This document shows, piece by piece, positions 5,405 through 34,502 of a DNA stretch of 51,024 nucleotides; position 1 is the first letter of the stretch, and each line of letters opens with the position of its first letter. The stretch covers positions 1 to 51,024 of the forward strand of contig JAIXOZ010000086.1 of assembly GCA_027486495.1 (NCBI GenBank). The letters are read 5' to 3'. This DNA comes from Comamonadaceae bacterium. GTDB taxonomy: Bacteria > Pseudomonadota > Gammaproteobacteria > Burkholderiales > Burkholderiaceae_C. The position numbers and the translations under genes are program-made. Below the pieces are notes generated by a model. It saw only the letters and a list, made by a program, of their open reading frames with translations. It was not told the DNA's origin and did no database searches.

Positions 5405-5788
5405 TGCAGACTCGGCCCCATAAAGTGGCCACCCCGGCATAGGCTGACGCGTCATCCCGACCCTGTCCTCGCCAAACGGTGAGGGCATCGGCGGGGACCA
5501 TGAGCAAGGGGTTTTGGTATTCGGTCGGCAAGTCTTTCGCACCTTTACTCAGTGCACATGGTTTCCGAGCGCGCTGCACACATCACCTTGCAGTGTTTAA
5601 GGGGCTTTGCCTGTCATGAGAAGCAGCGGCAAACGCGCCCGTATCAGCTTGTATTGCCCGTGGACACATTGGCGGCACCCAAATTGGGAACAACGGCCAG
5701 CAGATGCCGTTTTCTTGCAGACCTTCAAAAAGTAGCGGGCGGTGGTGTGTGGGGTTTAGGGCTGGGCCGAGTCGGTTATCGGCAAGGG
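5405..5788. other. 384-bp stretch without a supported gene
   Basis: This is the convergent gap between the Bug receptor and the aldehyde dehydrogenase. Short open frames occur on both strands but none has family similarity, a signal sequence or a convincing ribosome site. No strong U-tracted terminator was found. It may hold a dispersed intergenic repeat or a decayed gene, but nothing here proves either. Confidence 0.4.
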
Positions 5789-8898: not shown

Positions 8899-8919
8899 TT
8901 CGAGGCCTGGGGCGCTGCC

Positions 8920-9906
8920 TTATTCGGCCTTGGCACCTGAAATCTCAACCGCCCGTTTGAACTTGGCCATTTCGCTGCGGTGAAAAGCTTGGGTGTCTGC
9001 GGCACTGGAGCCAATCACCGTGGCCCCCTGTGCTTCCAGCTGCTGCTTGACGCCCGGGTCGTCCAGGGCTTTTTTGACCTCGGCTTGAATGCGCGCGACC
9101 AAAGTCGGTGGGGTGCCCGCCGGGGCCATCAAAACAATCCAGGCCGTGGCATCAAAACCAGGAATGAACTCGGAAATCGCGGGGACCTGCGGCAACTGGG
9201 GGGAGCGTTTGAGGGAGGTCACAGCCAGCGGAACAATGCTGCCCGACTTGATCTGTCCAACGAGAGAGGGCAACCCTTCAACGCCAGCCTGAACGTCACC
9301 GGCCATGACGGCCTGCATGGCCGGAGCGCCGCCCCGGTAACCCACATGCGTGAGTTTGATGCCTGCATCGGCCTTGATCAACTCCATGACCAAGTGCGAC
9401 GTTGTGCCCGGACCGGAAGAAGCATGGGCCAATTTGTCGGGCTGGGATTTGGCTGCGGCGATCAACTCAGGCAAGGTTTTGAAGTTTTGCTTGGGACTGG
9501 TCACGACCACTTGAGGAAAGGACACCAGTTGGGTCACCGCCGTGAAGTCCTTCAAGGCATCGTAAGGCAGCTTGGTGAACAAAAAAGGGTTGATGGCCAT
9601 GGTGCCGGGGGAGCCAAGCAGCAAGGTATAGCCGTCAGGCTTGGCGCGGGCCGCAAAGTCAGTGCCTATGTTACCGCTGGCTCCGGTTTTGTTGTCCACG
9701 TTCATGCCTTGAGCGGTGTTGGCGGTCATTTTGTTGGCAATGATCCTGGCCACCACATCGACTGCCGATCCGGCAGCAAAGGGGTTGACCCAAGTGACAG
9801 GGCGCGTAGGCCATTCAGTGGTTTGGGCCCCACTGCTCAAGGGCCACAACAAAGGCAAGGCAGCCAGCGAGGCCAAGGCCAGGCGGCGGGTTTTCAGTGC
9901 ATTCAT
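8920..9906 (-). CDS. Bug-family TTT periplasmic solute receptor
   Basis: A 328-aa receptor with a signal peptide at residues 1-29 (RRLALASLAALPLLWPLSSGAQ, shown here from residue 7 only in part: RRLALASLAALPLLWP) and the Bug pattern WPTRPVTWVNPFAAGSAVD, followed by VDNKTGASGNI and AKPDGYTLLL. ATG at 9906 has GGAG seven bases upstream, which decides the start over more distal codons. It follows the OYE-like gene by 62 bp on the same strand, so the two probably form an operon in which the receptor delivers an unsaturated or N-methylated acid to the reductase. No membrane TctAB genes are adjacent. Confidence 0.92.
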   Translation of the reverse strand: MNALKTRRLALASLAALPLLWPLSSGAQTTEWPTRPVTWVNPFAAGSAVDVVARIIANKMTANTAQGMNVDNKTGASGNIGTDFAARAKPDGYTLLLGSPGTMAINPFLFTKLPYDALKDFTAVTQLVSFPQVVVTSPKQNFKTLPELIAAAKSQPDKLAHASSGPGTTSHLVMELIKADAGIKLTHVGYRGGAPAMQAVMAGDVQAGVEGLPSLVGQIKSGSIVPLAVTSLKRSPQLPQVPAISEFIPGFDATAWIVLMAPAGTPPTLVARIQAEVKKALDDPGVKQQLEAQGATVIGSSAADTQAFHRSEMAKFKRAVEISGAKAE

Positions 9907-9968
9907 GCAAGTCTCCATGGTGATAAAAAAGGGCATTCGTGCAAACGGCATACAGGGCGGGCACGGTG

Positions 9969-11966: not shown

Positions 11967-12108
11967 TCATTTGAGTATGAACGAGCACTCCACCAGCCAC
12001 CCCCCGCGAAAACCCTGAGATTCAAGCCCTGTGAACCCATCAGCCAAGAGGGAAAACAGGCTTTGTTTGTGGCAAGGAAAGCGTCAAAAGGCCCCGACAT
12101 GCGGCACA

Positions 12109-12720
12109 TCAAGCCGCCAGCAAATAGCCTTCTGAAGCCGATGCGTCCAAAGTGCGCCCTTGAATCAAGGCTGGTGCAGCTTGCTTGAATGCTGCGACGA
12201 CCTGGCCCTCGTCCATGGAGAAAATATCGTCTTGCAGGAGCCTGGAAAAGAACAGATCGGCCGACAACTGCGGCGCATGCTGATGGCAATAATCGGCCAA
12301 CAGCATCCGATAAAAGTCCACAAAGTCACGCATCAAGGCACAAGTTTTCCTTGCATCGATCAATTGCGCCTGCTCGGGCACAGACAACAGTTTCAGCGGG
12401 TTTTCGCTGTACAAACCAAATCGGGTCCAGCCAAATTTAGGGTAAGCCGTTTGCGCACGCCAGTTGGTGTAGTGCCGCTTGAAATACGTCTGCATGCATT
12501 GGTCCGTAGCCACCAAAGCAAACAAGCACAAAATAAACATGGGACGCAACTCGGTGTCTATGTTTTCCAGGTCGTCTTGAGCGCGAATCCAGTTTTTGCC
12601 CCCAAACTGGATCAGGTCCTTGTCGTTCAAAATCTCTTTGAGCACTTGAGGCACTTCGCTGAATTGCAGCTTGCCGATATCACGTTGAAAACCGTCATTG
12701 AAATAAGTAACGATGCTCAT
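12109..12720 (-). CDS. Unrecognised 203-aa protein
   Basis: I do not recognise this family. The product is probably soluble and mainly helical, rich in aromatic residues (YFKRHYTNW, FGWTRFGLY), with one moderately hydrophobic stretch near residues 58-72 (LRPMFILCLFALVATD) that could be a buried helix. There is no signal peptide or known motif. ATG at 12720 is preceded by AAAGG about 8 bases upstream, a reasonable ribosome site, which supports a real gene. Codon use is less GC-biased than in neighbours and the upstream sequence is very AT-rich, consistent with acquisition by transfer or an infrequently expressed accessory gene. It stands alone between the OYE-like gene and an ABC receptor. Confidence 0.6.
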   Translation of the reverse strand: MSIVTYFNDGFQRDIGKLQFSEVPQVLKEILNDKDLIQFGGKNWIRAQDDLENIDTELRPMFILCLFALVATDQCMQTYFKRHYTNWRAQTAYPKFGWTRFGLYSENPLKLLSVPEQAQLIDARKTCALMRDFVDFYRMLLADYCHQHAPQLSADLFFSRLLQDDIFSMDEGQVVAAFKQAAPALIQGRTLDASASEGYLLAA

Positions 12721-13019
12721 TTTTTTGCCTTTCGATTAAAAAAATGAATTCAGCAGATGACAATTTGAAAAACCAAGGGACTGACAAGCATTCAATTGCG
12801 CCCCTCACAAATCCAAATATTTACCTTTCATTGGATTTGCTGTTTTTATTTTATGAAATCTTAATAATTAATTTTTAAAATAAAACAACCATTAGAGATT
12901 TATTACATCTTGTTTCAAATTTTCAAGTCTGCCGATGCGGGCATAAAAAAGTCTCGGCCATAAAGTTCACCCTCCAACAGTCCGCAGCAAAGTTAAGAAA
13001 AAGACAACCCAAAACCCGT
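12721..13019. other. AT-rich intergenic region
   Basis: This 299-bp gap is strikingly AT-rich from about 12820 to 12920, unlike the rest of the window. It probably holds the promoter of the unknown gene at 12720 and the 3' end of the ABC-receptor transcript. No gene, terminal inverted repeat or tRNA was seen. Confidence 0.5.
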
Positions 13020-14297
13020 TCACCCTCCCGGACGCACCATCTGGCAGGTGCTGGGCAGACGGGCCTGCTCGGCCTTGATCTGGTGCACCACTTTGAAGCC
13101 GTAACCGGAGCCTTCCACGTCAAAGGGCACACCTGGCGTGCCTTGGCGGGCCATCATGCCCACCACCAGAGGCTGCTGAAACTGGTGGTCTTGCGCCCGC
13201 ATGCTGCCGGTTTGTCCTGCGATGCTGACGCGGGCTTTTTCCAGTTGCATGGCCACGGCCACCGGGTCGGTGCCCCCGGCTTTTTCCACCGCCTGCGCCA
13301 GCGCCTCGATCATGAGTTGCATGCGCACATGCACATAGTCTTCGGAGGGTTTAGGGAAACGCTGACGAAAGTCTTGGTAGAACTGGGCGCTGGCCTGTCC
13401 TGGCACATTGGGCAGCCAGTCGGCCACCGCGATCACGCGGCCCACACCGGCTTCGCCAATGGCTGCAGGCGCGCCCAAGGCGTTGCCATAAAAGGTATAG
13501 AACTTGCCTTCGTAACCGGCCTCGCGCGCGGATTTGACCAAAAGCGTCAGGTCATTGCCCCAGTTGCCGGTGATCACGGCCTGCGCACCGCTGGCTTTGA
13601 TCTTGGCTGCATAGGGCAAGAAGTCTTTGACCCGCCCCATGGGGTGCAGCTCATCGCCCACGATCTGCACATCCGGGCGCTGCACGCCCAACTGCCGCCG
13701 GGCCTCACGCAACACGGCCTGACCAAAACTGTAGTCCTGACCGATCAGATAGGCCGATTTCACGCTTTGATCTTCACGCAAGACCTGCATGAGCGCTGCC
13801 ATGCGCATGTCGGCATGGGCATCGAAACGGAAATGCCAGAAGCTGCATTTTTCGTTGGTCAAGGCAGGGTCGACTGCCGAGTAATTGAGAAAGAGCACGC
13901 GCCGGTTGGGCTCGCGCTCGTTGTGCTTGTTGATGGCGTCGATCAGGGCCGCCGCATTGGCCGATGAGTTGCCTTGCAACACGACCTGCGCGCCGTCGTC
14001 GATGGCCGATTTGAGGGCCGACAAAGCCTCTTCGCTTTGGCCTTTGCTGTCGTGGCGCGTCAACACCATGGGCCGCATGCCTTGTGCGGTGGGCACGCCG
14101 CCGCGGGCATTGACCCGCTCGACGGCCCAGGCAATGTTGCGCAACACCGATTCACCGGTGTTGGCAAAGGGGCCGCTCAGGCCCTCGATCAAGGCCAGGC
14201 GAATGGGCGCGGGCGGATGGGCATGGGCGGGCACAAAACACACAACAGTGGCACAGGCCAGCAGCGTGCGTCGCGAAAAAAAGGGCAGTGAATGCAT
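13020..14297 (-). CDS. ABC-transporter periplasmic receptor, branched-chain amino acid (LivJ/Peripla_BP_6) type
   Basis: A 425-aa type I periplasmic binding protein. Residues about 1-26 (FFSRRTLLACATVVCFVPAHA) form a signal peptide, and the mature chain opens with PIRLALIEGLSGPFANTGE, typical of LivJ-like receptors. The domain continues to the C-terminus at normal length. ATG at 14297 is chosen because it starts the signal peptide. No permease or ATPase genes are adjacent, so it is an orphan receptor; ligands in this family include amino acids, urea, amides and aromatic acids. A perfect 14-bp palindrome lies 77 bp upstream of the start. Confidence 0.88.
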   Translation of the reverse strand: MHSLPFFSRRTLLACATVVCFVPAHAHPPAPIRLALIEGLSGPFANTGESVLRNIAWAVERVNARGGVPTAQGMRPMVLTRHDSKGQSEEALSALKSAIDDGAQVVLQGNSSANAAALIDAINKHNEREPNRRVLFLNYSAVDPALTNEKCSFWHFRFDAHADMRMAALMQVLREDQSVKSAYLIGQDYSFGQAVLREARRQLGVQRPDVQIVGDELHPMGRVKDFLPYAAKIKASGAQAVITGNWGNDLTLLVKSAREAGYEGKFYTFYGNALGAPAAIGEAGVGRVIAVADWLPNVPGQASAQFYQDFRQRFPKPSEDYVHVRMQLMIEALAQAVEKAGGTDPVAVAMQLEKARVSIAGQTGSMRAQDHQFQQPLVVGMMARQGTPGVPFDVEGSGYGFKVVHQIKAEQARLPSTCQMVRPGG

Positions 14298-14373
14298 GAC
14301 AAGACAGACGCAGGACCGATAACCGGTCCACACAAGCAAAGGGGCGGAGTTTAACCAGCTGGAAATCACACCC

Positions 14374-14387
14374 TCGGGTTAACCCGA
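14374..14387. promoter_or_regulatory. Perfect 14-bp palindrome, candidate operator
   Basis: TCGGGTTAACCCGA is self-complementary and lies in the 139-bp gap upstream of the orphan ABC receptor (start 14297) and just past the tsaD stop (14437). A transcription-factor site controlling the receptor is the simplest reading. No regulator gene is adjacent. Confidence 0.45.
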
Positions 14388-14436
14388 ATTCCAACAGGGC
14401 TTGTCAAGGGCCTTGTCAGGGCGGGATTTCGAAGCG

Positions 14437-15486
14437 TCAAACTCCGGCCAGCTCGTGCAGAGGCCAGCGTGGCTTGACGTCAAAGCTGTAACGGGCTTCA
14501 GCGTTTTGCGCCCCTGCTTGCAAACGCATCGCGGCGGCCATGGCGATCATGGCGCCGTTGTCGGTGCACAAATGCAGTTCGGGGTAGTGCACGCGCACCT
14601 TCGCTTTGGCGCAGGCAGCGTTGAGCTGCGCGCGCAGCTCGCGGTTGGCCCCCACCCCCCCGGCCACCACCAAGCGCTTCATGCCACTGGATTTGAGCGC
14701 GTTCATGGATTTTTTGACCAACACTTCCACAATCGCGGCTTGGGTCGATGCGGCCAAGTCGGCCCGCTCTTGCGCGCCTTCGGTGTGAGCGGCAGGGCCG
14801 ATTTTTTGGCTTTGAGTGAGCACCGCCGTCTTAAGGCCTGCAAAAGAAAAATCCAGATCACCACTGTGCAGCAGCGGGCGGGGCAACTTGTAGGCGGCTG
14901 GGTTGCCCTGCTCGGCCAGTTGCGACAAACCCGGGCCACCGGGGTAAGGTAGACCCATGAGCTTGGCCGATTTGTCAAAGGCTTCGCCTGCGGCGTCGTC
15001 AATCGTCTCGCCCAGCAGTTCGTAGCGGCTCACGCCGTCCACCCGCATCAACTGCGTGTGTCCGCCCGACACCAGCAAGGCGATGAAAGGGAATTCGGGC
15101 GGGTCGGCACTCAAAAATGGCGAGAGCAAATGCCCTTCGAGGTGGTGAACGCCCAGCACCGGCTTGCCCAAAGAAGCCGCCAGCGCACAGGCTACGCCCG
15201 AGCCCACGAGCAGCGCCCCGGCCAACCCCGGGCCCCGGGTGTAGGCCACCACATCAATGTCGGCCAAAGTAGCCCCCGCCTCGGCCAGCACCTGGCGGGT
15301 GAGCGGCAAAACCCGGCGGATGTGGTCACGGCTGGCCAGCTCGGGCACCACGCCGCCATAGGCTTGGTGCATCTCGATCTGACTGAAGAGCGCGTGCGAC
15401 AGCAAGCGCGGCATACCACCGCCCTTGGTGACCATCAAGGCCACGCCCGTTTCGTCGCATGAAGATTCAATACCCAAAATGTGCAT
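14437..15486 (-). CDS. tsaD: tRNA N6-adenosine threonylcarbamoyltransferase TsaD
   Basis: A 349-aa ASKHA-fold enzyme that, with TsaB and TsaE, transfers the threonylcarbamoyl group from TC-AMP to A37 of ANN-decoding tRNAs. [14 protein letters not shown] opens the protein. The metal-binding HHLEGH motif is at residues 114-119, and [17 protein letters not shown] and [10 protein letters not shown] follow in family order. Length is standard. ATG at 15486 is certain because it starts at the conserved MxILGIE. It is an essential cytoplasmic gene. It diverges from the ModA-like gene across 120 bp. Confidence 0.98.
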
Positions 15487-15606
15487 AACGGCGAGTTTAA
15501 GCGGGGCATGGGGCGAACCGGCGCCTTGTTCATAATCCTGACAGTTGCAGCGCCCCAATGTGAAAGGGCGTTGCGCATTTAACCCCTGCCATTCAAAGCG
15601 CCCCAC

Positions 15607-24713: not shown

Positions 24714-25652
24714 TCAATCTGCCAGGCTTAGTGCACTGTCTCTCAGGCAGCCCATGAAAATGCTTTGTTGCGTTTTCAGTCGCTCCTCGCGCAACCGAAA
24801 ACAGCACATCGGCCCACTGAGCAGCTTGGCGGGTGCACGCAGTACCTGCACCTGCGCAGTGGCTTCAAACTGTTTGGCCTGCTGATGGGCGATGGCCCAC
24901 AGCATCGGGGTTTGTCCCATCAGACTGAGGGCGAGCAAGGACGAGTCGGTTTGCACATCTGGACCGTGCCCCAAGCGATCGCCGTTGCGGTAGACCGACA
25001 GCATTCGGTCTATTTTGGGACGCAATGGGGTGTGGGGCGGCGGCAGCACCCAAGCCTCTTGCGCCAGATCCCCCCATGAAAGCTTCTTTTTTTTGTGCAA
25101 GCGGTGACCCAACCCTGCCAAGATGGTGCTGTGCTCCTCGTAAAGGGGCGTGACCTCCACCAGGTTCAAGTCGACACGCAATTCGGCGTGCGCCAGCATG
25201 AGGTCTAGGCGGCCATCCAGCAACTGCTCATAAAGCACCTCCAGTGGCAGCATCTGGGTGATGAGCAGCACCTCTGGCAAGATCTCGCGCGAACGCGCCA
25301 TAGCGCGGGCCAAGACCTCCTGCGAAAACGCAGCCAACACGCCGACCCGCATCTCAGCGCTGACACCACCGGACAAGCCCAGCAAGTCCTCCTCGGCCAG
25401 ATCGATCTCGGCCAGCACGCGGTGAGCGTGCTGAATGAGGCTCAAACCCGCCACAGTGGGCACCATGCGCTTGGTGGTGCGCTGAAACAAAATCACCTGC
25501 AACTGGTTTTCCAGCTGCGCAAGTGCCCTTGATGCAGCCGGTTGGGTGGAGTGCAGGATGTCTGCACACCGACTCAGGTTGAGCTCGCGCCCCAGAACGC
25601 TCACCAAGCGCAATTGCTGGAGCGTCAGCACCCTTTGTAAATTCAAAGCCAT
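24714..25652 (-). CDS. LysR-family transcriptional regulator
   Basis: A 312-aa regulator. The N-terminal winged helix at residues about 8-66 contains LSRCADILHSTQPAASRAL, and a linker helix leads to a type II periplasmic-fold effector domain at about 90-300. It diverges from the Bug-GMC oxidoreductase pair. The 132-bp gap has two overlapping inverted repeats, one just 7 bp from its own start, in line with autorepression plus activation of the divergent operon. ATG at 25652 is used rather than an in-frame TTG two codons earlier. Effector unknown, probably the imported acid or its product. Its 3' end converges on the yqeY-like gene with an 8-bp gap. Confidence 0.94.
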   Translation of the reverse strand: MALNLQRVLTLQQLRLVSVLGRELNLSRCADILHSTQPAASRALAQLENQLQVILFQRTTKRMVPTVAGLSLIQHAHRVLAEIDLAEEDLLGLSGGVSAEMRVGVLAAFSQEVLARAMARSREILPEVLLITQMLPLEVLYEQLLDGRLDLMLAHAELRVDLNLVEVTPLYEEHSTILAGLGHRLHKKKKLSWGDLAQEAWVLPPPHTPLRPKIDRMLSVYRNGDRLGHGPDVQTDSSLLALSLMGQTPMLWAIAHQQAKQFEATAQVQVLRAPAKLLSGPMCCFRLREERLKTQQSIFMGCLRDSALSLAD

Positions 25653-25658
25653 GATCAA

Positions 25659-25697
25659 TCATACCCATTCAGGTATGAATAGACCGGCATTATTCAT
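25659..25697. promoter_or_regulatory. Two overlapping inverted repeats, probable LysR operator
   Basis: TCATACC-N6-GGTATGA occupies 25659-25678 and ATGAATA-N9-TATTCAT occupies 25675-25697. Both have perfect 7-bp arms and share the central bases. LysR proteins bind such interrupted dyads (T-N11-A type) as a recognition site plus an activation site, matching the divergent gene layout. Confidence 0.65.
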
Positions 25698-25784
25698 TTG
25701 TCACACCGCAAGGGACTTTGAATAATGGCCAGCAGTCAAACACGGTTTTGACCTCAACCTACACCATCCAGGAGACCATTCACC

Positions 25785-26765
25785 ATGCCAACCCTTTCGG
25801 TTTCTCGACGTGCGGCCCACATTTTTTTGGCCAGCCTGATGCTGACGCTGGGCTTTGCCGCAACGGCACAAAACTACCCGAGCAAAGCCATCCGCATGGT
25901 CGTTCCCTGGCCTCCTGGCACGCCTGCCGATGTGTCCGGCCGCATGGTGGCCGAAAAAATGAGCACCGCTTTGGGCCAAGCCATCGTGGTGGACAACAAG
26001 CCTGGGGCAGCAGGCACCATTGGGATGGCCGATGCGTTGCGCCAGCCTGCCGACGGACACACCCTTTATCTGCTGTCCTCGGCTTCCCTGGTGGCACCGC
26101 TGCTGTTTCCGGCGCAGTCCATCCAATTCAGCCAGCTTGAACCCGTGGGTCACATGGCCTGGAGTTACAACGTGCTGGTTGCACCGATGACCAGCATGCT
26201 GAAAGGCCCCGCAGACATTGTTCAAACGGCCAAGGCAAAACCTGGCACGTTGAGTTTTGCATCCGGGGGCAACGGCACACCCGCGCATCTGGCTGGCGAA
26301 CTGTTCAAGCAACAAACCGGGTCCGTGACCACCCATGTGCCCTACAACCAGTTTGGCATGGCCATTGGAGACCTGATCGCCGACCGCACCAACTTCATGT
26401 TTTTGACGGCCTCAGCCGCCATCCCGCAAATACAAGGCGGCAAACTCAAAGCCATGGCTGTCACAGGTGCCAAACGTTTGCCTGCCCTCAAAGAGGTGCC
26501 CACCATGGCCGAGCAAGGCTTTGCTGACTTCGTGCTGCGTTCATTCGACGGCATGATGGTCAAGGTCGGGACCCCCAAAGAAGTGGTGGAGCGCCTGAAC
26601 ACCGAACTGAACAAAGCCTTGAATCTGCCCGAAGTTCGCGAACGCCTTGGGGCCTTGGCGCTGGAGACCGAGCCCATGAGCGGGAGCCAGTTTGGTGCCG
26701 TGATTGCCGCTGAAACCGAAAAGTGGCAACGCATCGGTCGCGCTGCCCAGATCAAGGCCGATTGA
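25785..26765 (+). CDS. Bug-family TTT periplasmic solute receptor
   Basis: A 326-aa receptor. The signal peptide covers residues about 1-28 (RRAAHIFLASLMLTLGFAA, ending ATAQ). The Bug pattern YPSKAIRMVVPWPPGTPADV, VDNKPGAAGTIG and QPADGHTLYLL follows. AGGAGA about 10 bases upstream supports ATG at 25785. The next gene begins directly after its stop codon, so receptor and GMC oxidoreductase are coupled. Typical ligands are mono-, di- or tricarboxylates. TctAB partners are not adjacent; those at 31385-33369 belong to another operon but could be shared. Confidence 0.93.
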   Translation: MPTLSVSRRAAHIFLASLMLTLGFAATAQNYPSKAIRMVVPWPPGTPADVSGRMVAEKMSTALGQAIVVDNKPGAAGTIGMADALRQPADGHTLYLLSSASLVAPLLFPAQSIQFSQLEPVGHMAWSYNVLVAPMTSMLKGPADIVQTAKAKPGTLSFASGGNGTPAHLAGELFKQQTGSVTTHVPYNQFGMAIGDLIADRTNFMFLTASAAIPQIQGGKLKAMAVTGAKRLPALKEVPTMAEQGFADFVLRSFDGMMVKVGTPKEVVERLNTELNKALNLPEVRERLGALALETEPMSGSQFGAVIAAETEKWQRIGRAAQIKAD

Positions 26766-28382
26766 ATGTGCATCAAGGACACCCCTTGCGACATCGTCAT
26801 TGTCGGGGCTGGCTCGGCTGGCTGCACCCTGGCTGCCCGGCTCAGCGAAGACCCCAACCTGCAGGTCACTTTGATCGAAGCAGGTACGCCCTCCAAGTAC
26901 CCATGGCTGAGCATTCCCATCGGCTATTTCAAAACCGTTGGCAACCCGGCACACGATTGGCAATTTGAAACACAACCCGAAACCGGCATGGCCGATCGGC
27001 GCTTGCCCTGGCCGCGAGGCAAGGGCCTGGGGGGCTCCAGCCTGATCAACGGCATGCTGTATTTGCGCGGCCACCAACAGGACTATGACCGTTGGCAAGA
27101 CTTGGGCAACCCGGGCTGGTCCTGGGCCGATGTGTTGCCCTATTTCCAACGCGCCATGAACACCGACCGCCCCCACCCCGGTGATGGCCAAGAGGGGCCT
27201 TTGTGGGTTTCTGAAGTGCCCCATGATCCGCTTTCCGATGCGTTTGTTGCGGCCGCTGCGCAATGCGGCATCCCGCCGACGGCCGACTTCAATGGCGGTG
27301 ACAACTCGGGCGCGGGCTACTTTCGCATGAACACGCGCCACGGCCAACGCATGAGCACCGAGCGGGCCTATTTGCGGCGCGCCATGCAACGCCCCAACTT
27401 GCAAGTCATCAGCGGCGCGCAGGTCACCCGCATCCTGATGCAGGGCACGCGAGCACAAGGCGTGAGCTGGCTGCAAAACGGGCACAGCCACAGCCTGCAT
27501 GCGCGACATCAAGTGGTGCTTTGCGCAGGTGCCATCCAGTCCCCGCAACTCTTGCAGCTGTCCGGCATGGGACCAAGCGCCTTGCTGGCCAAGCAACAGA
27601 TTGCACCTGTCATCGATTTGCCAGGCGTGGGCGAGAACCTGCAAGACCATTTGCAAGTGCGTCCATCTTTTCGCTGCCAAGGTGTGGAAACGCTGAACGA
27701 TGTGGCCAACAGCCCATGGCGCAGTGCCCGCGATTTTTTGCGCTACCAACTCACCCGCACGGGGTCTCTGGCCACCGGGGTTTACCGGGCTGGCGCGTTT
27801 TTGTCCGTGGAGAATGCCCAGCAGCCCCACTGGCCCAATGTGCAGATCCATTTCGGCTTGGTCAGCTTTGACCGCCCCCACCAACCGCCCCACCCTTTTC
27901 CGGGCATCACCCTGTCGGCCTGCATTTTGCGGCCCGAAAGCCGAGGGCGTATTCAGATTCGCAGCGCCGACCCCCTGGACGCTCCCGAGATACAGGCCAA
28001 TTACCTGAGCGCCGAAAACGACCAACGCCTGGCCGTGCAAATGGTGCACAAAATGCGCGAAATCGCCAGCCAGTCACCGCTGTCCGACATCATCGTGCAA
28101 GAGCATGAACCTGGCGCAGCAAGCCAAAGTGATGGCGATCTGCTCGATTGGGTGCGCCGCCGCGCGGGCAGCATTTTTCACCCGGTGGGCACCTGCGCCA
28201 TGGGGCCGCAGAGCGACCCGATGGCGGTGGTCGATGCGCGGCTGCGGGTCCACGGTGTGCAAGGTCTGCGTGTGGTGGATGGCTCGATCATGCCGCGCAT
28301 CGTGTCCGGCAACACCAACGCGCCCATCATCATGTTGGCCGAAAAAGCCGCTGACCTGATCCGCGCAGACCTGCGGGCTTAA
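26766..28382 (+). CDS. GMC-family flavin alcohol oxidoreductase
   Basis: A 538-aa FAD enzyme of the glucose-methanol-choline family, close in type to choline and alkan-1-ol dehydrogenases. The FAD motif [19 protein letters not shown] is at residues about 11-29, GMC signature 1 ([20 protein letters not shown]) at about 82-101, signature 2 ([16 protein letters not shown]) at about 256-271, and the catalytic HPVGTC-type histidine motif near 475, with asparagine in SGNTNAP near 515. ATG at 26766 immediately follows the Bug stop. It probably oxidises an alcohol group of the imported compound or a precursor. The 3' end overlaps the convergent MarR gene by 4 bp. Confidence 0.93.
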
Positions 28383-28951
28383 TCGACCAGAGGCGTTGAT
28401 TTCCAATGGGCGCGGCTGCCACCCAGCCTGCGTCCGGTGGCACCTTCGGGCTTGTGTCTTTGGGCCACAGCCAATGCGCGCGCGCGCAGGCTGTGCATGG
28501 CCTTGGCCAGCGCTGCTCGCTCGTCTGTGCCTAAGTCTTGCATGACCTCGTTGTGCACCTGAACCACGCGGGGGAAAATTTGCCGGTACAACTGCTTGCC
28601 GGCCTCCGTCAGTTCAACCCTCGCCTTGCGGCCATCCCCAGGCACGGGCTGGCGGTCCACCAAGCCTTTGGCCATCAGGCCGCGCAAAGTTTTGGAGGCT
28701 TGCGATCGGTCCACCGTGGTGCGGGCTGCCAAGTCCGAAGGCGACATGCCGCCGAGTTCGGCCAACATCGCCGCAAACTGCCACTCCTCGCGGGTGATGC
28801 CGTACTCGTTTTCGCAAATGCGGGTCACCAATGAACCGCTGATGCCCAAGAACTCGTGCAGCTGAAAATTGAGCAGATCGAAGATCGACTGCGGATTTTC
28901 AAAATGGGGCAGCGGGTCAGAGGCCGCCAGGGATGCTTTGGGAAAACCCAT
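28379..28951 (-). CDS. MarR-family transcriptional regulator
   Basis: A 190-aa winged-helix regulator. The core spans residues about 20-150: helix-turn-helix MSPSDLAARTTVDRSQASKTL, then the wing DRQPVPGDGRKARVELTEAG. The C-terminal tail of about 30 basic residues is longer than usual. ATG at 28951 is chosen as the first codon giving a normal MarR start; the frame remains open further upstream across the neighbouring gene, without similarity. It diverges from the aminotransferase-TTT-deacetylase operon with a 19-bp dyad between, so it most likely represses that operon until an effector binds. Confidence 0.92.
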   Translation of the reverse strand: MGFPKASLAASDPLPHFENPQSIFDLLNFQLHEFLGISGSLVTRICENEYGITREEWQFAAMLAELGGMSPSDLAARTTVDRSQASKTLRGLMAKGLVDRQPVPGDGRKARVELTEAGKQLYRQIFPRVVQVHNEVMQDLGTDERAALAKAMHSLRARALAVAQRHKPEGATGRRLGGSRAHWKSTPLVD

Positions 28952-28987: not shown

Positions 28988-29006
28988 TAATGGATTTTTT
29001 CCATTA
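28988..29006. promoter_or_regulatory. 19-bp dyad TAATGGA-N5-TCCATTA, probable MarR operator
   Basis: Perfect 7-bp arms around a five-T spacer lie centrally in the 81-bp gap between the MarR gene and the aminotransferase operon. Size and symmetry suit a MarR dimer. With such a short gap it must overlap at least one promoter. Confidence 0.7.
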
Positions 29007-29032
29007 CCCCCTTGCTGCCTATGCTCGGGGGC

Positions 29033-30394
29033 ATGAATTCCAACAGCATCGACATCCGCAGCGCCAACGCGCAGCACATGTACCACCCCATGATCGACCC
29101 CAAGGCGGTGCAAGCTGCGCCGCCCTTGATCATTGACCGGGGCGAAGGCGTGCACGTCTACGACATCGACGGCAAGCGTTATCTGGACACGGTGGCTTCC
29201 CTGTGGAACGTGAACGTGGGGCACAACCGCCCCGAGGTCATCGACGCCATCAAGGCGCAACTGGACAAGCTGGCTTATTACTCCACCTTTCAAAACACCT
29301 CCAACCCGCCGGCCATCGAGCTGTCGGCGCGTCTGATGCGCATGTTTGCCCCCGAGAAGATGAACAAGGTGTTCTTTTCATCGGGTGGCTCAGACGCGGT
29401 GGAAACCGCGCTCAAACTGGCGCGCCAATACTGGAAGCTCAATGGCCAGCCCGATCGCCACCAGTTCATCTCGCTCAAATGGGGCTACCACGGCGTGCAT
29501 TTTGGCGGCGCGTCCATCAACGGCAACCCGATGTTCCGCAGCGCCTACGAGCCCCTGCTGCCCGGCTGCCACTTGGCCGAGACGCCCTACACCTACCGCA
29601 ACCCCTGGAACGAAACCGACCCGGCCAAGCTTTCTCAGCTGTGCCTGGACCAGTTGTCGCAGCTGATCGAGCAAGTTGGGGCGCACAACATCGCCGCCCT
29701 GGTGGCGGAGCCGGTACAAGGCGCAGGCGGCGTGATCGTGCCGCACGACAGCTACTGGCCGGGTCTGCGGCAACTGCTGGACCAGCACGGCATCTTGCTG
29801 ATCAGCGATGAAATCGTGACCGGCTTTGGCCGCATTGGCGCCATGTGCGGTGCGCGCGCATGGGGCGTGGCCCCGGACATCATGGCCATGGCCAAGGGCA
29901 TCAATTCGGGTTATGTGCCTTTGGGGGCCACGCTCATCAACGAACGCCTGGCCAGCGCCTGGAACCAGCCCGGCGTGCCCGCTGCGCTGATGCACGGCTA
30001 CACCTATTCGGGCCATGCGCTGGCCTGCGCTGCGGCCAACGCGAATCTGGACATTGTCGACAGCGAGGACCTGCCCGGCAACGCCAGCCGCGTGGGGGCT
30101 TACATGCAAGATCAGCTGCAAGAGTTGATGGCGTACGCCCATGTGGGCGAAGTGCGCGGCAAAGGCATGATGGCCGCCGTTGAACTGGTGACCGACAAAG
30201 CCAGCAAGGCCATGCTCATGCCGCCCTCGCCTTACATCCAGACGCTGGTGGGCACGGCCCGCCATGCGGGTGCCATCATCCGCGTGCAAGGCAACCGCCT
30301 CATCCTGTCGCCGCCCCTGGTCTTTACCCGCCAGGATGTGGACGAGAGCCTGCGCATCTTGCACATCGCGTTCTCTGCCGCAGAAAAAGTTTGA
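29033..30394 (+). CDS. Class III (omega) aminotransferase
   Basis: A 453-aa PLP enzyme of the class III aminotransferase family, which uses omega-amino groups of substrates such as beta-alanine, GABA or putrescine with pyruvate or 2-oxoglutarate. The PLP phosphate loop SSGGSDAVETALK is at residues about 116-128, the cofactor aspartate is D259 in SDEIVTGFGR, and the Schiff-base lysine is K288 (MAKGINSGYVPLG). ATG at 29033 follows GGGGG; ATG 29021 is possible but lacks a ribosome site. It leads a five-gene operon with a TTT transporter and a deacetylase, suggesting it removes the amino group freed by deacetylation. Confidence 0.94.
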   Translation: MNSNSIDIRSANAQHMYHPMIDPKAVQAAPPLIIDRGEGVHVYDIDGKRYLDTVASLWNVNVGHNRPEVIDAIKAQLDKLAYYSTFQNTSNPPAIELSARLMRMFAPEKMNKVFFSSGGSDAVETALKLARQYWKLNGQPDRHQFISLKWGYHGVHFGGASINGNPMFRSAYEPLLPGCHLAETPYTYRNPWNETDPAKLSQLCLDQLSQLIEQVGAHNIAALVAEPVQGAGGVIVPHDSYWPGLRQLLDQHGILLISDEIVTGFGRIGAMCGARAWGVAPDIMAMAKGINSGYVPLGATLINERLASAWNQPGVPAALMHGYTYSGHALACAAANANLDIVDSEDLPGNASRVGAYMQDQLQELMAYAHVGEVRGKGMMAAVELVTDKASKAMLMPPSPYIQTLVGTARHAGAIIRVQGNRLILSPPLVFTRQDVDESLRILHIAFSAAEKV

Positions 30395-30425
30395 TTTCAC
30401 TTCACCCCACCAACAGGAGACTCAC

Positions 30426-31382
30426 ATGAACCACCGCATCCGTTTGATCGCCCTCGCCGCTCTGGCCGCTGCCGCTGCCCTGCCCGCCATGGCGCAGGAC
30501 AAATGGCCCAGCAAGCCCATCGAGATCATCTACCCCTACCCACCGGGCAACGACATGGACGTGGTGACCCGCCTGGTCGCAGAAGGCATGAGCAAGCGCC
30601 TGGGTGTGCCGGTGCAGGTGATCAACAAGCCCGGCGGCGGCGGCGTGGTGGGCTTTGCCGAGATGACCCGCGCCAAACCCGATGGCTACACCATCGGCAC
30701 CTGGACGCCTGGCCCGGGCATCTCGCAAATCATTGCGGGCAACACACCCTACAAAATCAGCGACTACCAATCGGTGGGGGGCATGCTGATCAACGATTTC
30801 GTGTTGGCTGCGCGTGGCGATATTCCGGCCACCAACCTCAAAGAATTTGCCGCTTGGGCCAAGAAAAGCGGCAAACCCGTCGTGATTGGCAGTTATGCCC
30901 CCGCCGCCGTGCCTGCGCTGATCGCCGCCAAGATTGCCAAAAAAGACGGCTGGGCCTACAAGGTCGTGGCTTTTCCGAACCCCAGCGCCAAGGAACTGGT
31001 CGCGGGTGATGCCGATGTGACCACCGCCGGGGCTGAAGGGGCCATCTCTTATGCCAAGGCCGGTCAGATCAAAATCCTGTCCGCTTGGGGCCCACAACGC
31101 AACCCTGTCTTCCCGAACGCCGCAACCCCCGCCGAAGAAGGCTACGGTGACTTGTACACCTGGGGCGGCATGGCCGCACCAGTGGGCGTGCCCAAGGACA
31201 TCATCAACAAGCTCTCCAGCGTGATGATGGAATCGCTCAAAGACAAGGCCGTGCAAGACCAATTCAAGAAAGCCGGTATCCCCGCCTTCCCCATGACCGC
31301 CGACCAAATGAGCAAGCGCGTGACTGAAGACGCCAAATGGATTGGCGAGCTGATGACCGAACTGGGCATGACCAAGAAGTGA
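30426..31382 (+). CDS. Bug/TctC-family TTT periplasmic receptor
   Basis: A 318-aa receptor. The signal peptide spans residues 1-24 (LIALAALAAAAALPAMAQ) with AMA-Q cleavage. Bug features are WPSKPIEIIYPYPPGNDMD, INKPGGGGVVGFAEM and AKPDGYTIGTW. The first ligand loop reads YPPGNDMDV, an unusual sequence that may reflect an uncommon ligand. AGGAGA precedes ATG 30426. The tctB gene starts 2 bp after its stop and tctA follows, making this the only complete TTT system in view; the other three Bug genes are orphans. Confidence 0.96.
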   Translation: MNHRIRLIALAALAAAAALPAMAQDKWPSKPIEIIYPYPPGNDMDVVTRLVAEGMSKRLGVPVQVINKPGGGGVVGFAEMTRAKPDGYTIGTWTPGPGISQIIAGNTPYKISDYQSVGGMLINDFVLAARGDIPATNLKEFAAWAKKSGKPVVIGSYAPAAVPALIAAKIAKKDGWAYKVVAFPNPSAKELVAGDADVTTAGAEGAISYAKAGQIKILSAWGPQRNPVFPNAATPAEEGYGDLYTWGGMAAPVGVPKDIINKLSSVMMESLKDKAVQDQFKKAGIPAFPMTADQMSKRVTEDAKWIGELMTELGMTKK

Positions 31383-31384
31383 CG

Positions 31385-31873
31385 ATGAAGCCTGAGACAA
31401 GCGTTCGCGGTTGGTCCTGGGACCGGGTCTTGCTGCTGGTCTTGGCACTGATGGCGGGCAATCTGCTCATGGCCAGTCGCCAGCTCATCGTGCCTTACCC
31501 GGAAACCGCGCTTTGGTACGAATCGGCGGCCTTTTTTCCGATGCTGGCGCTGGGGCTCATGGCCTTGGCCGGTCTGGTCGAGGTGTTCAACCGCCGCGAT
31601 GCCCTCGAACTCAAGGACTCGGACGAACTCGACTCCAGTCAGGCCCGCATGGGTCTGGCCTGGGCCGTTCTGGGGCTGTTTGGCCTGTACATGCTGGCCG
31701 TGCCTTGGCTGGGTTATCTGAGCAGCACTTTGCTCTTTCTGGTGGCCAGCAGCCGGGTGCTGGGCTTTGCCTGGCGCACCACTTGGGCGCTGAGCCTGCC
31801 CTTGGCGCTGGCCATGTGGTGGGTGTTTCTGAAACTCCTCAAAGTCCACTTCGGACACGGCTGGTTGATCTGA
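31385..31873 (+). CDS. tctB: TTT transporter small membrane subunit TctB
   Basis: A 162-aa inner-membrane protein with four predicted helices: about residues 13-31 (WDRVLLLVLALMAGNLLMA), 45-63, 91-125 in two parts, and 135-153 (WALSLPLALAMWWVFLKLL). Its size and layout are those of TctB, the poorly conserved small subunit that joins TctA in proton- or sodium-driven uptake. ATG at 31385 is 2 bp after the receptor stop, and tctA follows by 2 bp. Identity rests mainly on topology and context. Confidence 0.9.
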   Translation: MKPETSVRGWSWDRVLLLVLALMAGNLLMASRQLIVPYPETALWYESAAFFPMLALGLMALAGLVEVFNRRDALELKDSDELDSSQARMGLAWAVLGLFGLYMLAVPWLGYLSSTLLFLVASSRVLGFAWRTTWALSLPLALAMWWVFLKLLKVHFGHGWLI

Positions 31874-31875
31874 CC

Positions 31876-33369
31876 ATGGAATTTTTTGACAGTCTGTCGC
31901 AAGGTTTTGCGGCCTTGGGCACTTGGCCAATCGTGCTGTCCCTGTTGATGGGCTCGGCACTGGGCATTGTGGTAGGCGTGCTGCCCGGCGTGGGGCCCGG
32001 CGTGACGATTGCCGTGCTGCTGCCCTTCACGTATGGCATGGCCCCGCTGGCGGGCATTTCCTTGCTGCTGGGGGTGTACTGCGGCGCCTTTTACGGTGGC
32101 GCGGTCACGTCCATCCTGATTCGCACGCCCGGCGAAGCCTCGTCCATCATGACCATGTTCGATGGTTACCCCATGGCCAAAAATGGCCAGGCGCAAAGGG
32201 CTTTGTCATTGGCCTTCATGTCGGCATTCATTGGCGGAATTGTGAGCGCCTTGCTGCTGGGCCTGGCAGCACGCCCACTGGCTGGTTTTGCGGCCAAATT
32301 TGGCGCACCTGAAAGCGTCATGGCCATCTTGCTGGCCAGCCTGTGCGTGGGCAAGGCCTATCAGCGCCAGTTTGCCTCGGCCATGATGATGATGTGCTTG
32401 GGCTTCTTCCTGGCCACCGTGGGCATCGACCCCAACTCCAACGAACAACGCTACACGCTGGGACTCCCCGCCCTGCTCAGCGGTATCCCGTTGGTGCCCG
32501 TGGCGGTGGGCATGTTCGGCATGGCGCAGGCTTTGGTCATGGTCAGCTCGCCTGTGCCCACGATTGATTCGTCGCTGATTGGCCGTGCAGGCGTGTCATG
32601 GCGCGCTTTTCTGGAGCCCTTCAAATACCCCAAAACCTTGGGCAAGGGCCTGTTCCTGGGCTCGGCCATCGGTGTCTTGCCCGCTGTGGGTGCGGCCTTG
32701 TCCACCTCGCTGGCTTACTTTTGGGCGCAACGCGGTGCCAAAGACACCACGCCTTTTGGCGAGGGCAACCCCGAGGGCATCGTCGCAGCCGAAAGCGCCA
32801 ACAACTCCAACTCGGGCGGCGCCATGATCACGGTGCTGACCTTGGGCATTCCGGGCGACGCCATCACCGCCATCATCATGGGCGTGTTTGTGGTGCACGG
32901 CATCGTGCCGGGCCCGTCGCTGTTCATGGACCGCCCGGAAATCATCAACGGCGTGCTGTCGGCCTTGCTGGTCATCAACGTGGTCATCCTGGCCCTGCTC
33001 GTGGTGTGCGTCAAACCGCTGGCCCGCCTGGCCTATGTGAATCCACGCATTCTGGGCCTTGCGATTTTGGCGCTGTGCTTTGTGGGCGCCTACTCGGCGG
33101 CCAATTCGATGTATTACGTGCTGATTGCCACGGTGTTCGGCGTCTTCGGGTTGGTGTGTGCACGGGCCAATATCCCCACCATTCCGCTCATTTTGGGTAT
33201 GGTCATGGGTGACACGCTGGAGTCGGCCTTGCGGCAAACGCTGGGCCGCAGCGACGGCTCGCTGATGCCGTTCATCACACGCCCCATCTCGGCCAGCATC
33301 TTGGCCGTCATGGTTCTGATGTTGATCTGGCCCTGGCTGTCCCGGGTGCTGATCAAAAGCAAAGACTGA
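31876..33369 (+). CDS. tctA: TTT transporter large membrane subunit TctA
   Basis: A 497-aa inner-membrane permease with about 11-12 helices, the channel subunit of the TTT transporter. The family motif VGVLPGVGPGVTIAVLLPFT is at residues about 35-54, with GAFYGGAVTSILIRTPGEAS near 73-92 and the second repeat motif GNPEGIVAAESANNSNSGGA near 298-317, followed by LGIPGDAITAIIMG. Length matches TctA. It follows tctB by 2 bp; the deacetylase begins 8 bp after its stop. It may also serve the orphan Bug receptors in this window. Confidence 0.97.
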   Translation: MEFFDSLSQGFAALGTWPIVLSLLMGSALGIVVGVLPGVGPGVTIAVLLPFTYGMAPLAGISLLLGVYCGAFYGGAVTSILIRTPGEASSIMTMFDGYPMAKNGQAQRALSLAFMSAFIGGIVSALLLGLAARPLAGFAAKFGAPESVMAILLASLCVGKAYQRQFASAMMMMCLGFFLATVGIDPNSNEQRYTLGLPALLSGIPLVPVAVGMFGMAQALVMVSSPVPTIDSSLIGRAGVSWRAFLEPFKYPKTLGKGLFLGSAIGVLPAVGAALSTSLAYFWAQRGAKDTTPFGEGNPEGIVAAESANNSNSGGAMITVLTLGIPGDAITAIIMGVFVVHGIVPGPSLFMDRPEIINGVLSALLVINVVILALLVVCVKPLARLAYVNPRILGLAILALCFVGAYSAANSMYYVLIATVFGVFGLVCARANIPTIPLILGMVMGDTLESALRQTLGRSDGSLMPFITRPISASILAVMVLMLIWPWLSRVLIKSKD

Positions 33370-33377
33370 AATCCCTG

Positions 33378-34502
33378 ATGACGCCTACCACTGCCTATGT
33401 GACCGACGAGCTGTGCTTCTGGCATGACCCGGGCAACTACGCCCTGATGCTCAAGCCCGGTGGTTTTGTAGAACCCTACAACCGCCACATCGAAAACGCC
33501 GCCCCCAAGCGGCGCCTGCACAACCTGATCCAGCAATCAGGCCTGGTGCACGATCTGAAGGTCATCCCAGCTCGCGACGCCCAGGTGCACGAGCTCACCC
33601 GCCTGCACAGTGCCAGCTACGTGGCCAAGGTCGAACAAATCGCATTGGCCGGTGGCGGCGACACCGGCATTGGCGCACCCATCTCTTCCAATGGCTGGGC
33701 CGCTGCCCGCCGTTCAGCCGGTTGCGCCCTCACGGCCGTGGACGCGGTCATGCAGGGACAAGCGCAAATGGCCTATGCCCTGACGCGCCCGCCGGGCCAC
33801 CATGCCGAACCCGAGCAAGGCATGGGCTTTTGCGTGTTTGCCAATGCGGCGCTGGCTGCCGCCCACGCCATCGAGGTGCATGGCCTGCAGCGCGTGGCCA
33901 TCGTCGACTGGGACGTGCACTTTGGCAACGGCACCCAAAAATGCTTTGAAAACCGCAGCGATGTGCTGACGGTTTCGGTGCATCAGCAAGCGGGCTACCT
34001 CTTCGTCAAGGGCGAGGCCGACGAACTCGGCCAGGGCGCTGGCGCGGGCTTCAACATCAACATCCCCCTGCCCCCGGGTTGCGGCTTCGGGGCTTACCGC
34101 GAGTCGTTTGAAAAAATCATCCTCCCGGCGCTGGACGCCTACCAGCCAGAATTGATCATCGTGGCCTGCGGCTATGACGCCGGGCGCTTTGACCCGCTGG
34201 GCCGCATGATGCTCGACGGTGTGGCCTTTCGCTGGATGACCGATGCGATACTGGCCATGGCCCGCAACCACGCCCAAGGCCGCGTGGTCATGACGCACGA
34301 AGGCGGTTATTGCCCGGTGTCTGTGCCGTTTTGGGGGATGTCGGTGCTGGAACAAATGACCGGGCTGAAAACCGAGGTGGTCTGCCCCTTCACCGGGCAA
34401 CACGACCAGATGCCCGCGCAAAAATTGCAAACCGAACAGGCCCGCTTGGTGCAGTCATTGGCCGGGTATTTTGAAGACATCCGGCAAAAACACTGGGCTT
34501 GA
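33378..34502 (+). CDS. Class II HDAC-like/acetylpolyamine amidohydrolase family deacetylase
   Basis: A 374-aa zinc amidohydrolase of the arginase-deacetylase fold. Catalytic features are the tandem histidines H141-H142 (PPGHHAEP), zinc ligands D179 and H181 (DWDVHFGNGTQ) and D267 (CGYDAGRFDP), and the transition-state tyrosine Y311 (HEGGYC). All are present, so it should be active. Bacterial members remove acetyl groups from acetylpolyamines, acetylated amino acids or proteins. As the last gene of the MarR-controlled operon, 8 bp after tctA, it most likely acts on the imported compound, freeing an amine for the class III aminotransferase. Confidence 0.94.
   Translation: MTPTTAYVTDELCFWHDPGNYALMLKPGGFVEPYNRHIENAAPKRRLHNLIQQSGLVHDLKVIPARDAQVHELTRLHSASYVAKVEQIALAGGGDTGIGAPISSNGWAAARRSAGCALTAVDAVMQGQAQMAYALTRPPGHHAEPEQGMGFCVFANAALAAAHAIEVHGLQRVAIVDWDVHFGNGTQKCFENRSDVLTVSVHQQAGYLFVKGEADELGQGAGAGFNINIPLPPGCGFGAYRESFEKIILPALDAYQPELIIVACGYDAGRFDPLGRMMLDGVAFRWMTDAILAMARNHAQGRVVMTHEGGYCPVSVPFWGMSVLEQMTGLKTEVVCPFTGQHDQMPAQKLQTEQARLVQSLAGYFEDIRQKHWA

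What the first reader, a model, noticed from the sequence alone, without database searches (positions are those of the whole stretch)
28988..34502. MarR-controlled operon joining a complete TTT transporter to a deacetylase and an omega-aminotransferase
Five tightly spaced genes encode a class III aminotransferase with K288, a Bug receptor, TctB, TctA and a zinc deacetylase with all catalytic residues. TTT systems carry carboxylates, class III aminotransferases act on omega-amines, and HDAC-like enzymes remove acetyl groups. The set reads as import of an N-acetylated amino acid (for example 4-acetamidobutyrate or an acetylated polyamine catabolite), deacetylation, then transamination to a semialdehyde. 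The residues and gene order are seen; the substrate is inferred. I know of no described TTT route of this kind.
Basis: partly seen in the sequence, partly recalled or inferred. Interest (0 to 1): 0.75.

Follow-up and report, generated by a model that had tools for sequence, protein, structure and literature searches.

The report
Amide-eating operon with interchangeable hydrolase slot
A freshwater bacterium carries a tightly controlled set of genes that probably imports a small acetylated amino compound, strips off the acetyl group with an enzyme related to human histone deacetylases, and then removes the amine for food; relatives put unrelated amide-cutting enzymes in the same gene position, which hints at what this puzzling enzyme family does in bacteria.

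Summary
In detail: MarR (28379-28951, minus) faces AT-BugB-TctB-TctA-HDAC-like deacetylase (29033-34502), gaps 31, 2, 2 and 8 bp, catalytic residues present. A perfect 19-bp palindrome (28988-29006) lies between, conserved in relatives and the only copy found in the genome. The set is not chance: a class III aminotransferase (AT) lies near the deacetylase in 21 of 21 Limnohabitans-type loci long enough to show it and in 6 of 9 other close loci, against 0 of 60 control regions. Strongest new evidence: the position after TctA is an amide-hydrolase slot. In 60 congeneric genomes, 17 carry AT plus deacetylase; all 4 with AT alone carry an unrelated Amidohydro_3 hydrolase there; a more distant genome has an amidase there. 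The importer is exchanged too (TTT or NMT1-type ABC). This supports import, amide hydrolysis and transamination and argues against a protein-deacetylase role. Aldehyde dehydrogenases in four operon variants resemble succinate-semialdehyde dehydrogenases (below the curated cut-off), favouring an N-acetyl omega-amino acid; the substrate stays inferred. Acetylpolyamines are disfavoured. Rival: N-acetyl arylalkylamines, because four more distant HDAH loci sit in or beside hpa clusters.

The parts
28379..28951 (-). MarR-family regulator, 190 aa, divergent from the operon
   Evidence: MarR_2 58.6 bits, MarR 41.1 bits (scanned with a short upstream extension); start
28988..29006 (.). candidate MarR operator TAATGGA-TTTTT-TCCATTA
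   Evidence: 0 mismatches in 13 and 1 in 7 of 20 Limnohabitans-type loci showing MarR and AT, 1 in L036; 3-6 in L105, L066, L071, L037; 0 in L234, 1 in L236 and in L237 before the AT, 6 in L238; only site in own genome at up to 2 mismatches; of 2000 random 130-bp window pieces 4 held the site itself, none had 1-2 mismatches, 8 had 3
29033..30394 (+). class III aminotransferase, 453 aa, catalytic K288
   Evidence: nearest solved chains 5lh9 (omega transaminase) and 6s54
30426..31382 (+). Bug/TctC solute receptor BugB, 318 aa
   Evidence: PF03401 133.8 bits; nearest solved chains 2dvz and BugD 2f5x
31385..31873 (+). TctB small membrane subunit, 162 aa
   Evidence: PF07331 55.2 bits
31876..33369 (+). 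TctA large membrane subunit, 497 aa
   Evidence: PF01970 414.5 bits
33378..34502 (+). HDAC-like zinc deacetylase, 374 aa; occupies the hydrolase slot of the operon
   Evidence: PF00850 276.7 bits; best solved chains 5li3 and 5g0x, HDAH; residues
25785..28382 (+). possible accessory pair: second Bug receptor (25785-26765) and GMC oxidoreductase (26766-28382), facing a LysR gene (24714-25631, minus)
   Evidence: GMC within 8 kb of the deacetylase in 14 of 25 Limnohabitans-type loci and 2 of 9 other close loci (L067, L071, where it directly follows the deacetylase), 0 of 60 controls

Best explanation
A MarR-controlled catabolic operon. BugB binds an N-acylated, most likely N-acetylated, omega-amino acid (for example N-acetyl-beta-alanine or 4-acetamidobutyrate) in the periplasm and TctAB imports it. 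The HDAC-like zinc enzyme hydrolyses the amide, releasing acetate and the free omega-amino acid. The class III AT passes the amine to a keto acid, giving a semialdehyde, which an SSADH-like aldehyde dehydrogenase (ALDH) oxidises; that gene is in the operon in some relatives, and in this genome a 49% homologue lies on another contig (C18). Shown: genes, residues, conserved palindrome, conserved linkage, exchange of hydrolase and importer. Inferred: transport, reactions, substrate, and that MarR represses at the palindrome.
For: Linkage: AT near the deacetylase in 21 of 25 Limnohabitans-type loci (the other 4 end at a contig edge before the AT position) and 6 of 9 other close loci, 0 of 20 and 0 of 40 controls. 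The genomes of the other 3 (L067, L069, L108) hold an AT elsewhere at 73, 71 and 74% (L108 shares its genome with L105). In 250 family genomes the three with AT above 70% are the three with the close deacetylase. Genus, 60 genomes: both 17, deacetylase only 1 (contig starts inside it), AT only 4, neither 38. Hydrolase slot: Amidohydro_3 directly after TctA in all 4 AT-only genomes, one cut by a contig end; AS-family amidase there in L238; deacetylase allele plus S58 peptidase in L053-L056 and L058. Importer exchange with MarR, ALDH, AT and deacetylase kept: L036 TTT; L037 and L066 NMT1-type ABC. Acid semialdehyde: ALDHs of L036, L037, L066 and L234 are 60-74% alike in the pairs compared, each scores best with SSADH, and L036's best solved relatives are led by KGSADH and SSADH. 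Acetyl: RPPGHH and EGGY present, which Graf 2024 ties to a small foot pocket (PMC11532494, section 13 read).
Against: No substrate was tested. The window's operon has no ALDH. SSADH scores are below the curated cut-off (426-469 vs 646). The four operon ALDHs keep the AbKGSADH Arg281 equivalent but none of N159, Q160, R163, and Arg281's role there rests on docking. Sulfatase genes near 6 of 9 close non-Limnohabitans loci are unexplained by this route. Cluster 1b relatives deacetylate lysine peptides in vitro. L067, L069 and L108 lack the AT within 8 kb. Only 11 of 44 more distant HDAH loci have a class III AT near, 6 of them specifically similar. The AT/deacetylase identity correlation (r 0.858, n 16) and the Fisher test are not corrected for species descent.
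Confidence: 0.55

Rival explanations
1. The substrate is an N-acetyl arylalkylamine (for example N-acetyltyramine or N-acetyldopamine, perhaps sulfated), not an acid: deacetylation, transamination to an arylacetaldehyde, oxidation to an arylacetate.
For: Four more distant HDAH loci, each with an MFS gene beside the deacetylase, lie in or beside hpa (4-hydroxyphenylacetate) genes: Aquitalea L075 (same contig as L148), Vogesella L076, Pantoea sp. Cy-639 L077, Agrobacterium L111 (annotation of L111). L148 also has an ALDH best matched by StyD (704.9 bits, cut-off 850) and an AT over the PRK07481 cut-off. Sulfatases near 6 of 9 close non-Limnohabitans loci. The window AT's nearest solved relative is an omega-transaminase.
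Against: With the hpa panel at 35% identity or more (45% for the two ALDHs) none of 25 Limnohabitans-type loci has a hit and 1 of 9 other close loci has one HpaI-like hit (2 of 40 arbitrary regions also had a hit, 0 of 20 other HDAC loci). Operon ALDHs of the close clade are SSADH-like with the K-x-R-N-A-G-Q motif, not StyD-like. A TTT importer points to a carboxylate.
Confidence: 0.2
2. The acyl group is not acetyl: the operon degrades another omega-amino amide such as a pantothenate-like or beta-alanyl compound.
For: Hydrolase families in the slot are diverse; S58 (DmpA/BapA-type) peptidase genes directly follow the deacetylase in 5 Limnohabitans-type loci and in L105.
Against: RPP and EGGY motifs are tied to acetyl preference in cluster 1b.
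Confidence: 0.12
3. The deacetylase is a protein lysine deacetylase that switches the AT or another operon protein, not a catabolic enzyme.
For: Characterised relatives (PA3774, KpHdaH) deacetylate lysine substrates in vitro; BsAcuC deacetylates an acetyl-CoA synthetase (passages).
Against: Its slot is filled by Amidohydro_3 or amidase genes in relatives; the active-site entrance is remodelled and residue 182 is F or Y.
Confidence: 0.07
4. Acetylated polyamine catabolism.
For: Solved relatives of the AT include a polyamine:pyruvate transaminase (9j4z); HDAC-fold acetylpolyamine hydrolases exist.
Against: Motif is 273-PLG, neither PEG (HDAC10) nor PIS (bacterial ApaH); PA3774 does not hydrolyse acetylpolyamines (PMC4784309, passages); a TTT importer would be odd for a cation.
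Confidence: 0.03
5. N-acetyl aminosulfonate (N-acetyltaurine type) catabolism.
For: NMT1-type ABC importers in L037 and L066 and an NMT1 receptor in L239; N-acetyltaurine import and hydrolysis genes are annotated in Ruegeria pomeroyi (PMC4334477, passages).
Against: No Xsc over the cut-off in this genome, which is 95.4% complete (best 315.6 vs 676.4 bits).
Confidence: 0.03

Closest known systems
Bacterial class II HDAC-like amidohydrolases, cluster 1b of Graf 2024 (P. aeruginosa HdaH/PA3774, KpHdaH; dimethoate hydrolase DmhA, propanil hydrolase PrpH)
   Same: Full-length similarity (331.4 bits to 5li3 and 329.7 to 5g0x, which I recall as the P. aeruginosa enzyme; also 9gku propanil and 9gkw dimethoate hydrolase), catalytic residues, RPP and EGGY motifs, N-terminal L1 region
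   Different: Distinct subclade: F/Y182 for His, mostly L208 for Pro and C336 for Asp, G99 at the rim, N35-R36 in the L1 loop; sits in an import operon; the small-molecule members named by Graf act on pesticides, this one probably on a natural metabolite
TTT transporters (TctABC, Bug receptors)
   Same: Complete three-part set over Pfam cut-offs; receptor nearest 2dvz (BugE, glutamate) and 2f5x (BugD, aspartate) among solved chains
   Different: Linked to a deacetylase and an omega-AT; no N-acyl amino acid in the part of the review's ligand table shown (PMC5812351, passages)
GABA/omega-amino acid catabolism (class III AT plus SSADH)
   Same: AT with an SSADH-like ALDH in four operon variants
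   Different: An importer and an exchangeable amide hydrolase belong to the same operon
N-acetyltaurine degradation (naaS, ABC importer, Tpa)
   Same: Logic of import, amide hydrolysis, transamination (PMC4334477, passages)
   Different: TTT importer here; no Xsc over cut-off; NaaS was not compared by sequence
Ectoine degradation (DoeA/DoeB/DoeD)
   Same: Deacetylase plus class III AT with an importer (recalled)
   Different: No ectoine hydrolase among the five genes; deacetylase of another family (recalled)

Membership tests
Classical zinc HDAC family, cluster 1b | Hist_deacetyl domain over cut-off and catalytic HH, D, H, D, Y | tested here: met
Classical zinc HDAC family, cluster 1b | RPPXHH and EGGY motifs | tested here: met
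   137-RPPGHH-142 and 308-EGGY-311 (definition from PMC11532494 section 13)
Classical zinc HDAC family, cluster 1b | second His after the zinc-ligand His (DxHH) | tested here: not met
   F in 33 and Y in 2 of 35 clade rows, His in 77 of 77 others. It is a common feature of the family in this sample, not a criterion I found stated as defining; so the enzyme is called HDAC-like, a divergent subclade
Classical zinc HDAC family, cluster 1b | tetramer; lysine deacetylase activity | not testable with these tools
   needs purified protein
Acetylpolyamine amidohydrolases | PIS (bacterial) or PEG (HDAC10) gatekeeper motif | tested here: not met
   273-PLG-275, placed by the D-P motif after the zinc ligand, not by a structural alignment
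TTT transporter | TctA, TctB and TctC proteins over Pfam cut-offs in one operon | tested here: met
TTT transporter | transport of its ligand | not testable with these tools
   needs binding and uptake assays
Class III omega-aminotransferase (PRK07481) | subfamily score over cut-off and PLP lysine | tested here: met
   664.6 vs 575 bits; K288
Class III omega-aminotransferase (PRK07481) | arginine that binds the keto-acid carboxylate | tested here: inconclusive
   R417 and R422 invariant in three sequences; their role is recalled from related enzymes
MarR-controlled operon | MarR domain, divergent gene, conserved palindrome | tested here: met
MarR-controlled operon | binding of MarR to the palindrome and repression | not testable with these tools
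   needs gel shift and expression data

The most novel reading that the evidence does not exclude
This subclade has a natural, small-molecule catabolic role for the HDAC fold outside polyamines (to my knowledge the first): a dedicated N-acetyl omega-amino acid deacetylase occupying an operon slot that evolution also fills with Amidohydro_3 and amidase enzymes. By extension much of bacterial cluster 1b (HDAH/PA3774 type), whose natural substrate is unsettled, may serve catabolism of N-acetylated amines rather than protein deacetylation.
Probability: 0.35. Interest if true: 0.72.

Novelty: new variant of a known kind. Interest (0 to 1): 0.55.

Why it matters
Bacterial class II HDAC-like enzymes have structures and inhibitors, but for the P. 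aeruginosa member the function 'remains elusive' and HDAH's natural substrate is called unknown (PMC4784309, passages). A conserved operon in which such an enzyme is exchangeable with two unrelated amide-hydrolase families gives a direct, cheap test of what this subclade does, and the palindrome and the Bug receptor offer two independent ways to find the ligand. It would also add an N-acyl amino compound to the diet of the freshwater genus Limnohabitans and a ligand class to TTT transporters.

Tried and rejected
Acetylpolyamine reading: disfavoured. Taurine-type route: no Xsc over cut-off. A carboxylate-binding K26 in the L1 loop looked attractive in three sequences, but Q or P replaces it in others, so it was dropped; R36 holds in 35 of 35. 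The idea that every HDAH gene has an importer beside it does not hold: in 16 of 16 loci of one family (f55) of the phylum sample my importer panel finds none within 8 kb (their neighbours were not domain-scanned). A wider regulon for the operator: no second site. Of the 11 of 44 distant loci counted with a class III AT, 6 (L038, L116, L121, L123, L148, L149) are at about 36-57% identity; L117-L120 and L133 are at 27-32%.

Limits of the counts. The distant sample is 40 of the 41 loci found (G947 was not fetched) plus L038-L041. The 20 other-HDAC controls were picked's list; the 40 arbitrary regions lie at about one third and two thirds of 20 single-contig family genomes. The sulfatase, GMC and ALDH queries were taken partly from the loci counted; one search recounts with each locus's own query left out. 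Six rows (L116, L122, L125, L080, L081, L087) were dropped from the residue count because the extended frame held a stop, and L070 as a duplicate of L037; the 77 outgroup rows include two duplicate pairs with one extra row each, L128/L082 and L148/L075. Gene calls outside the window are from my own simple caller. Structure prediction was not run: sequence similarity already settles the fold, and I saw no way to inspect a pocket with the outputs offered.

Literature: searches (and 74 for the ALDH) showed no paper on a TTT-deacetylase-aminotransferase operon in their listings, which showed 2 to 20 titles each; most subscription journals are not held. Seen beyond listings: PMC11532494 (outline, sections 13 and 16, passages), PMC4784309, PMC4334477, PMC9870897, PMC5812351, PMC5385487 (passages). 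Plasmid HDAH records (26 records, 6 opened) were used for context and as query sources.
Full report
What is there. The window is contig C63 of a 3.78-Mb draft genome. Its genus apparently includes Limnohabitans planktonicus: the AT of locus L049's genome has the same place and score as one listed as same genus (G1032). Five genes read left to right with gaps of 31, 2, 2 and 8 bp: class III aminotransferase (AT), Bug receptor (BugB), TctB, TctA and an HDAC-like deacetylase, each over its Pfam cut-off. A MarR gene faces them. Between lies TAATGGA-TTTTT-TCCATTA at 28988-29006. It has 0 mismatches in 13 and 1 in 7 of the 20 Limnohabitans-type loci that show MarR and AT, and 1 in L036, of a different genus, whose first gene is an aldehyde dehydrogenase. 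It is the only site found in the genome at up to two mismatches. More distant loci (L105, L066, L071, L037) have 3-6 mismatches.

Is it more than chance? An AT lies within 8 kb of the deacetylase in 21 of 25 Limnohabitans-type loci; the other four (L043, L044, L055, L060) start at a contig end before the AT position. It is there in 6 of 9 other close loci and 11 of 44 distant ones (6 of them specifically similar), and in 0 of 20 and 0 of 40 controls. The genomes of the three close loci without a neighbouring AT (L067, L069, L108) hold an AT at 73, 71 and 74% identity elsewhere; L108 shares its genome with L105.

Phylogenetic profile. Among 250 genomes of the family, 243 have some HDAC at E 1e-30, but only three have a close one (100, 75, 68%), and exactly those three have the AT above 70% (100, 75, 72%). 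Among 60 genomes of the genus, 18 have the deacetylase, 21 the AT, 17 both (Fisher p 2.5e-10, not corrected for descent). The single deacetylase-only genome starts a contig inside the gene and is 84% complete.

The hydrolase slot. The four AT-only genomes were opened. All keep AT-BugB-TctB-TctA, and MarR in the three whose contig reaches it. Directly after TctA, where the deacetylase stands in the window, all four have an Amidohydro_3 enzyme, 64-88% identical in the pairs compared (the L235 copy is cut by a contig end; Pfam was run on L234 and L236, the others follow by identity). L234 adds an SSADH-like aldehyde dehydrogenase and keeps a perfect operator. L237 also has an amidase over the indoleacetamide-hydrolase cut-off (542.1 vs 532) between MarR and the AT, and L235 a fragment of the same amidase before its AT. 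In the genome of L067 the slot holds an AS-family amidase (L238), while its deacetylase sits about 12 kb away beside a GMC oxidoreductase. In L053 and L054 nucleotide identity to the window is 86-93% across TctA but 71-83% in the deacetylase, with a Peptidase_S58 gene behind it (Pfam run on the L056 copy). Unrelated amide-cutting enzymes thus replace or accompany the deacetylase at one position, which makes a small-molecule amide the simplest common denominator and a regulatory protein-deacetylase role unlikely.

The importer is exchanged too. L036 has MarR, ALDH, AT, TTT, deacetylase; L066 has MarR, ALDH, AT, an ABC importer with two NMT1-type receptors and two permeases, then the deacetylase; L037 has the same with a second aminotransferase and two SDR genes added. 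In gene trees of AT and deacetylase L036 and L066 are close neighbours.

Which substrate? Graf 2024 (section 13 read) ties the RPP and EGGY motifs to acetyl preference; both are present. The gatekeeper motif is PLG, not the PEG or PIS of polyamine enzymes (section 16 read; sequence), and PA3774 does not act on acetylpolyamines (PMC4784309, passages). The ALDHs of four operon variants (L036, L037, L066, L234) each score best with SSADH, below its cut-off; the solved relatives of the L036 enzyme are led by KGSADH and SSADH; all four keep the Arg281 equivalent that docking placed on the succinate-semialdehyde carboxylate, but not N159, Q160 or R163 (PMC5385487, passages). The unlinked 49% homologue in this genome (C18) keeps all four positions. 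With a TTT importer this favours an acid, so N-acetyl omega-amino acids lead. Against: hpa-linked relatives with a StyD-like ALDH point to N-acetyl arylalkylamines for another branch of the family, and sulfatases near 6 of 9 close non-Limnohabitans loci (0 of 60 controls, own queries left out) are not explained.

A remodelled deacetylase. Against 77 other cluster 1b-like rows, the 35 clade rows have F or Y for the second His of DxHH; 33 have Leu at 208 where the others have Pro, 34 have Cys at 336 where 75 have Asp; all 35 have Gly at rim position 99 and Asn-Arg at 35-36 in the L1 region. Graf 2024 names the L1 loop as a specificity determinant.

Verdict.

Noticed in passing
window 24714-28382: LysR gene facing an orphan Bug receptor and a choline-dehydrogenase-like GMC oxidoreductase; a GMC gene is near the deacetylase in 14 of 25 Limnohabitans-type loci. 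The MarR operator sequence has no second copy there.
   Followed up: partly
L037 5183-6736, L066 11218-12513, L067 13837-15546, L068 2153-3613, L071 8883-12027, L108 3568-5178: Sulfatase-family genes recur near the deacetylase outside Limnohabitans (6 of 9 loci, 0 of 60 controls); L108's passes the choline-sulfatase cut-off. Link to the pathway unexplained.
   Followed up: partly
L075/L148, L076, L077, L111: HDAH genes, each with an MFS gene beside it, lie in or beside 4-hydroxyphenylacetate (hpa) genes in Aquitalea, Vogesella, Pantoea and Agrobacterium, suggesting an N-acetyl aromatic amine for that branch.
   Followed up: partly
L215 (G000:C144) 7091-15520: A 51% paralogue of the AT in the same genome sits with P450, 2Fe-2S ferredoxin, glutamine-synthetase-like, GATase, ALDH, UPF0261 and HAD genes; looks like an amine-degradation cluster.
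   Followed up: partly
L053, L054, L055, L056, L058, L105, L239: Peptidase_S58 (DmpA/BapA type) genes next to the deacetylase or near the AT; L105's nearest solved relatives are an aminopeptidase (1b65) and beta-peptidyl aminopeptidase.
   Followed up: partly
window 3480-11966: Separate catabolic-looking stretch with a PdxA-like dehydrogenase, an ALDH, an FAD_binding_2 protein and an Oxidored_FMN protein, and two apparent Bug receptors at 4445-5404 and 8920-9936 (read from sequence, not scanned).
   Followed up: no
L108 7935-9410: Second deacetylase copy in the genome of L105 whose match stops at query residue 295; it looks truncated or out of frame at the C-terminus.
   Followed up: no
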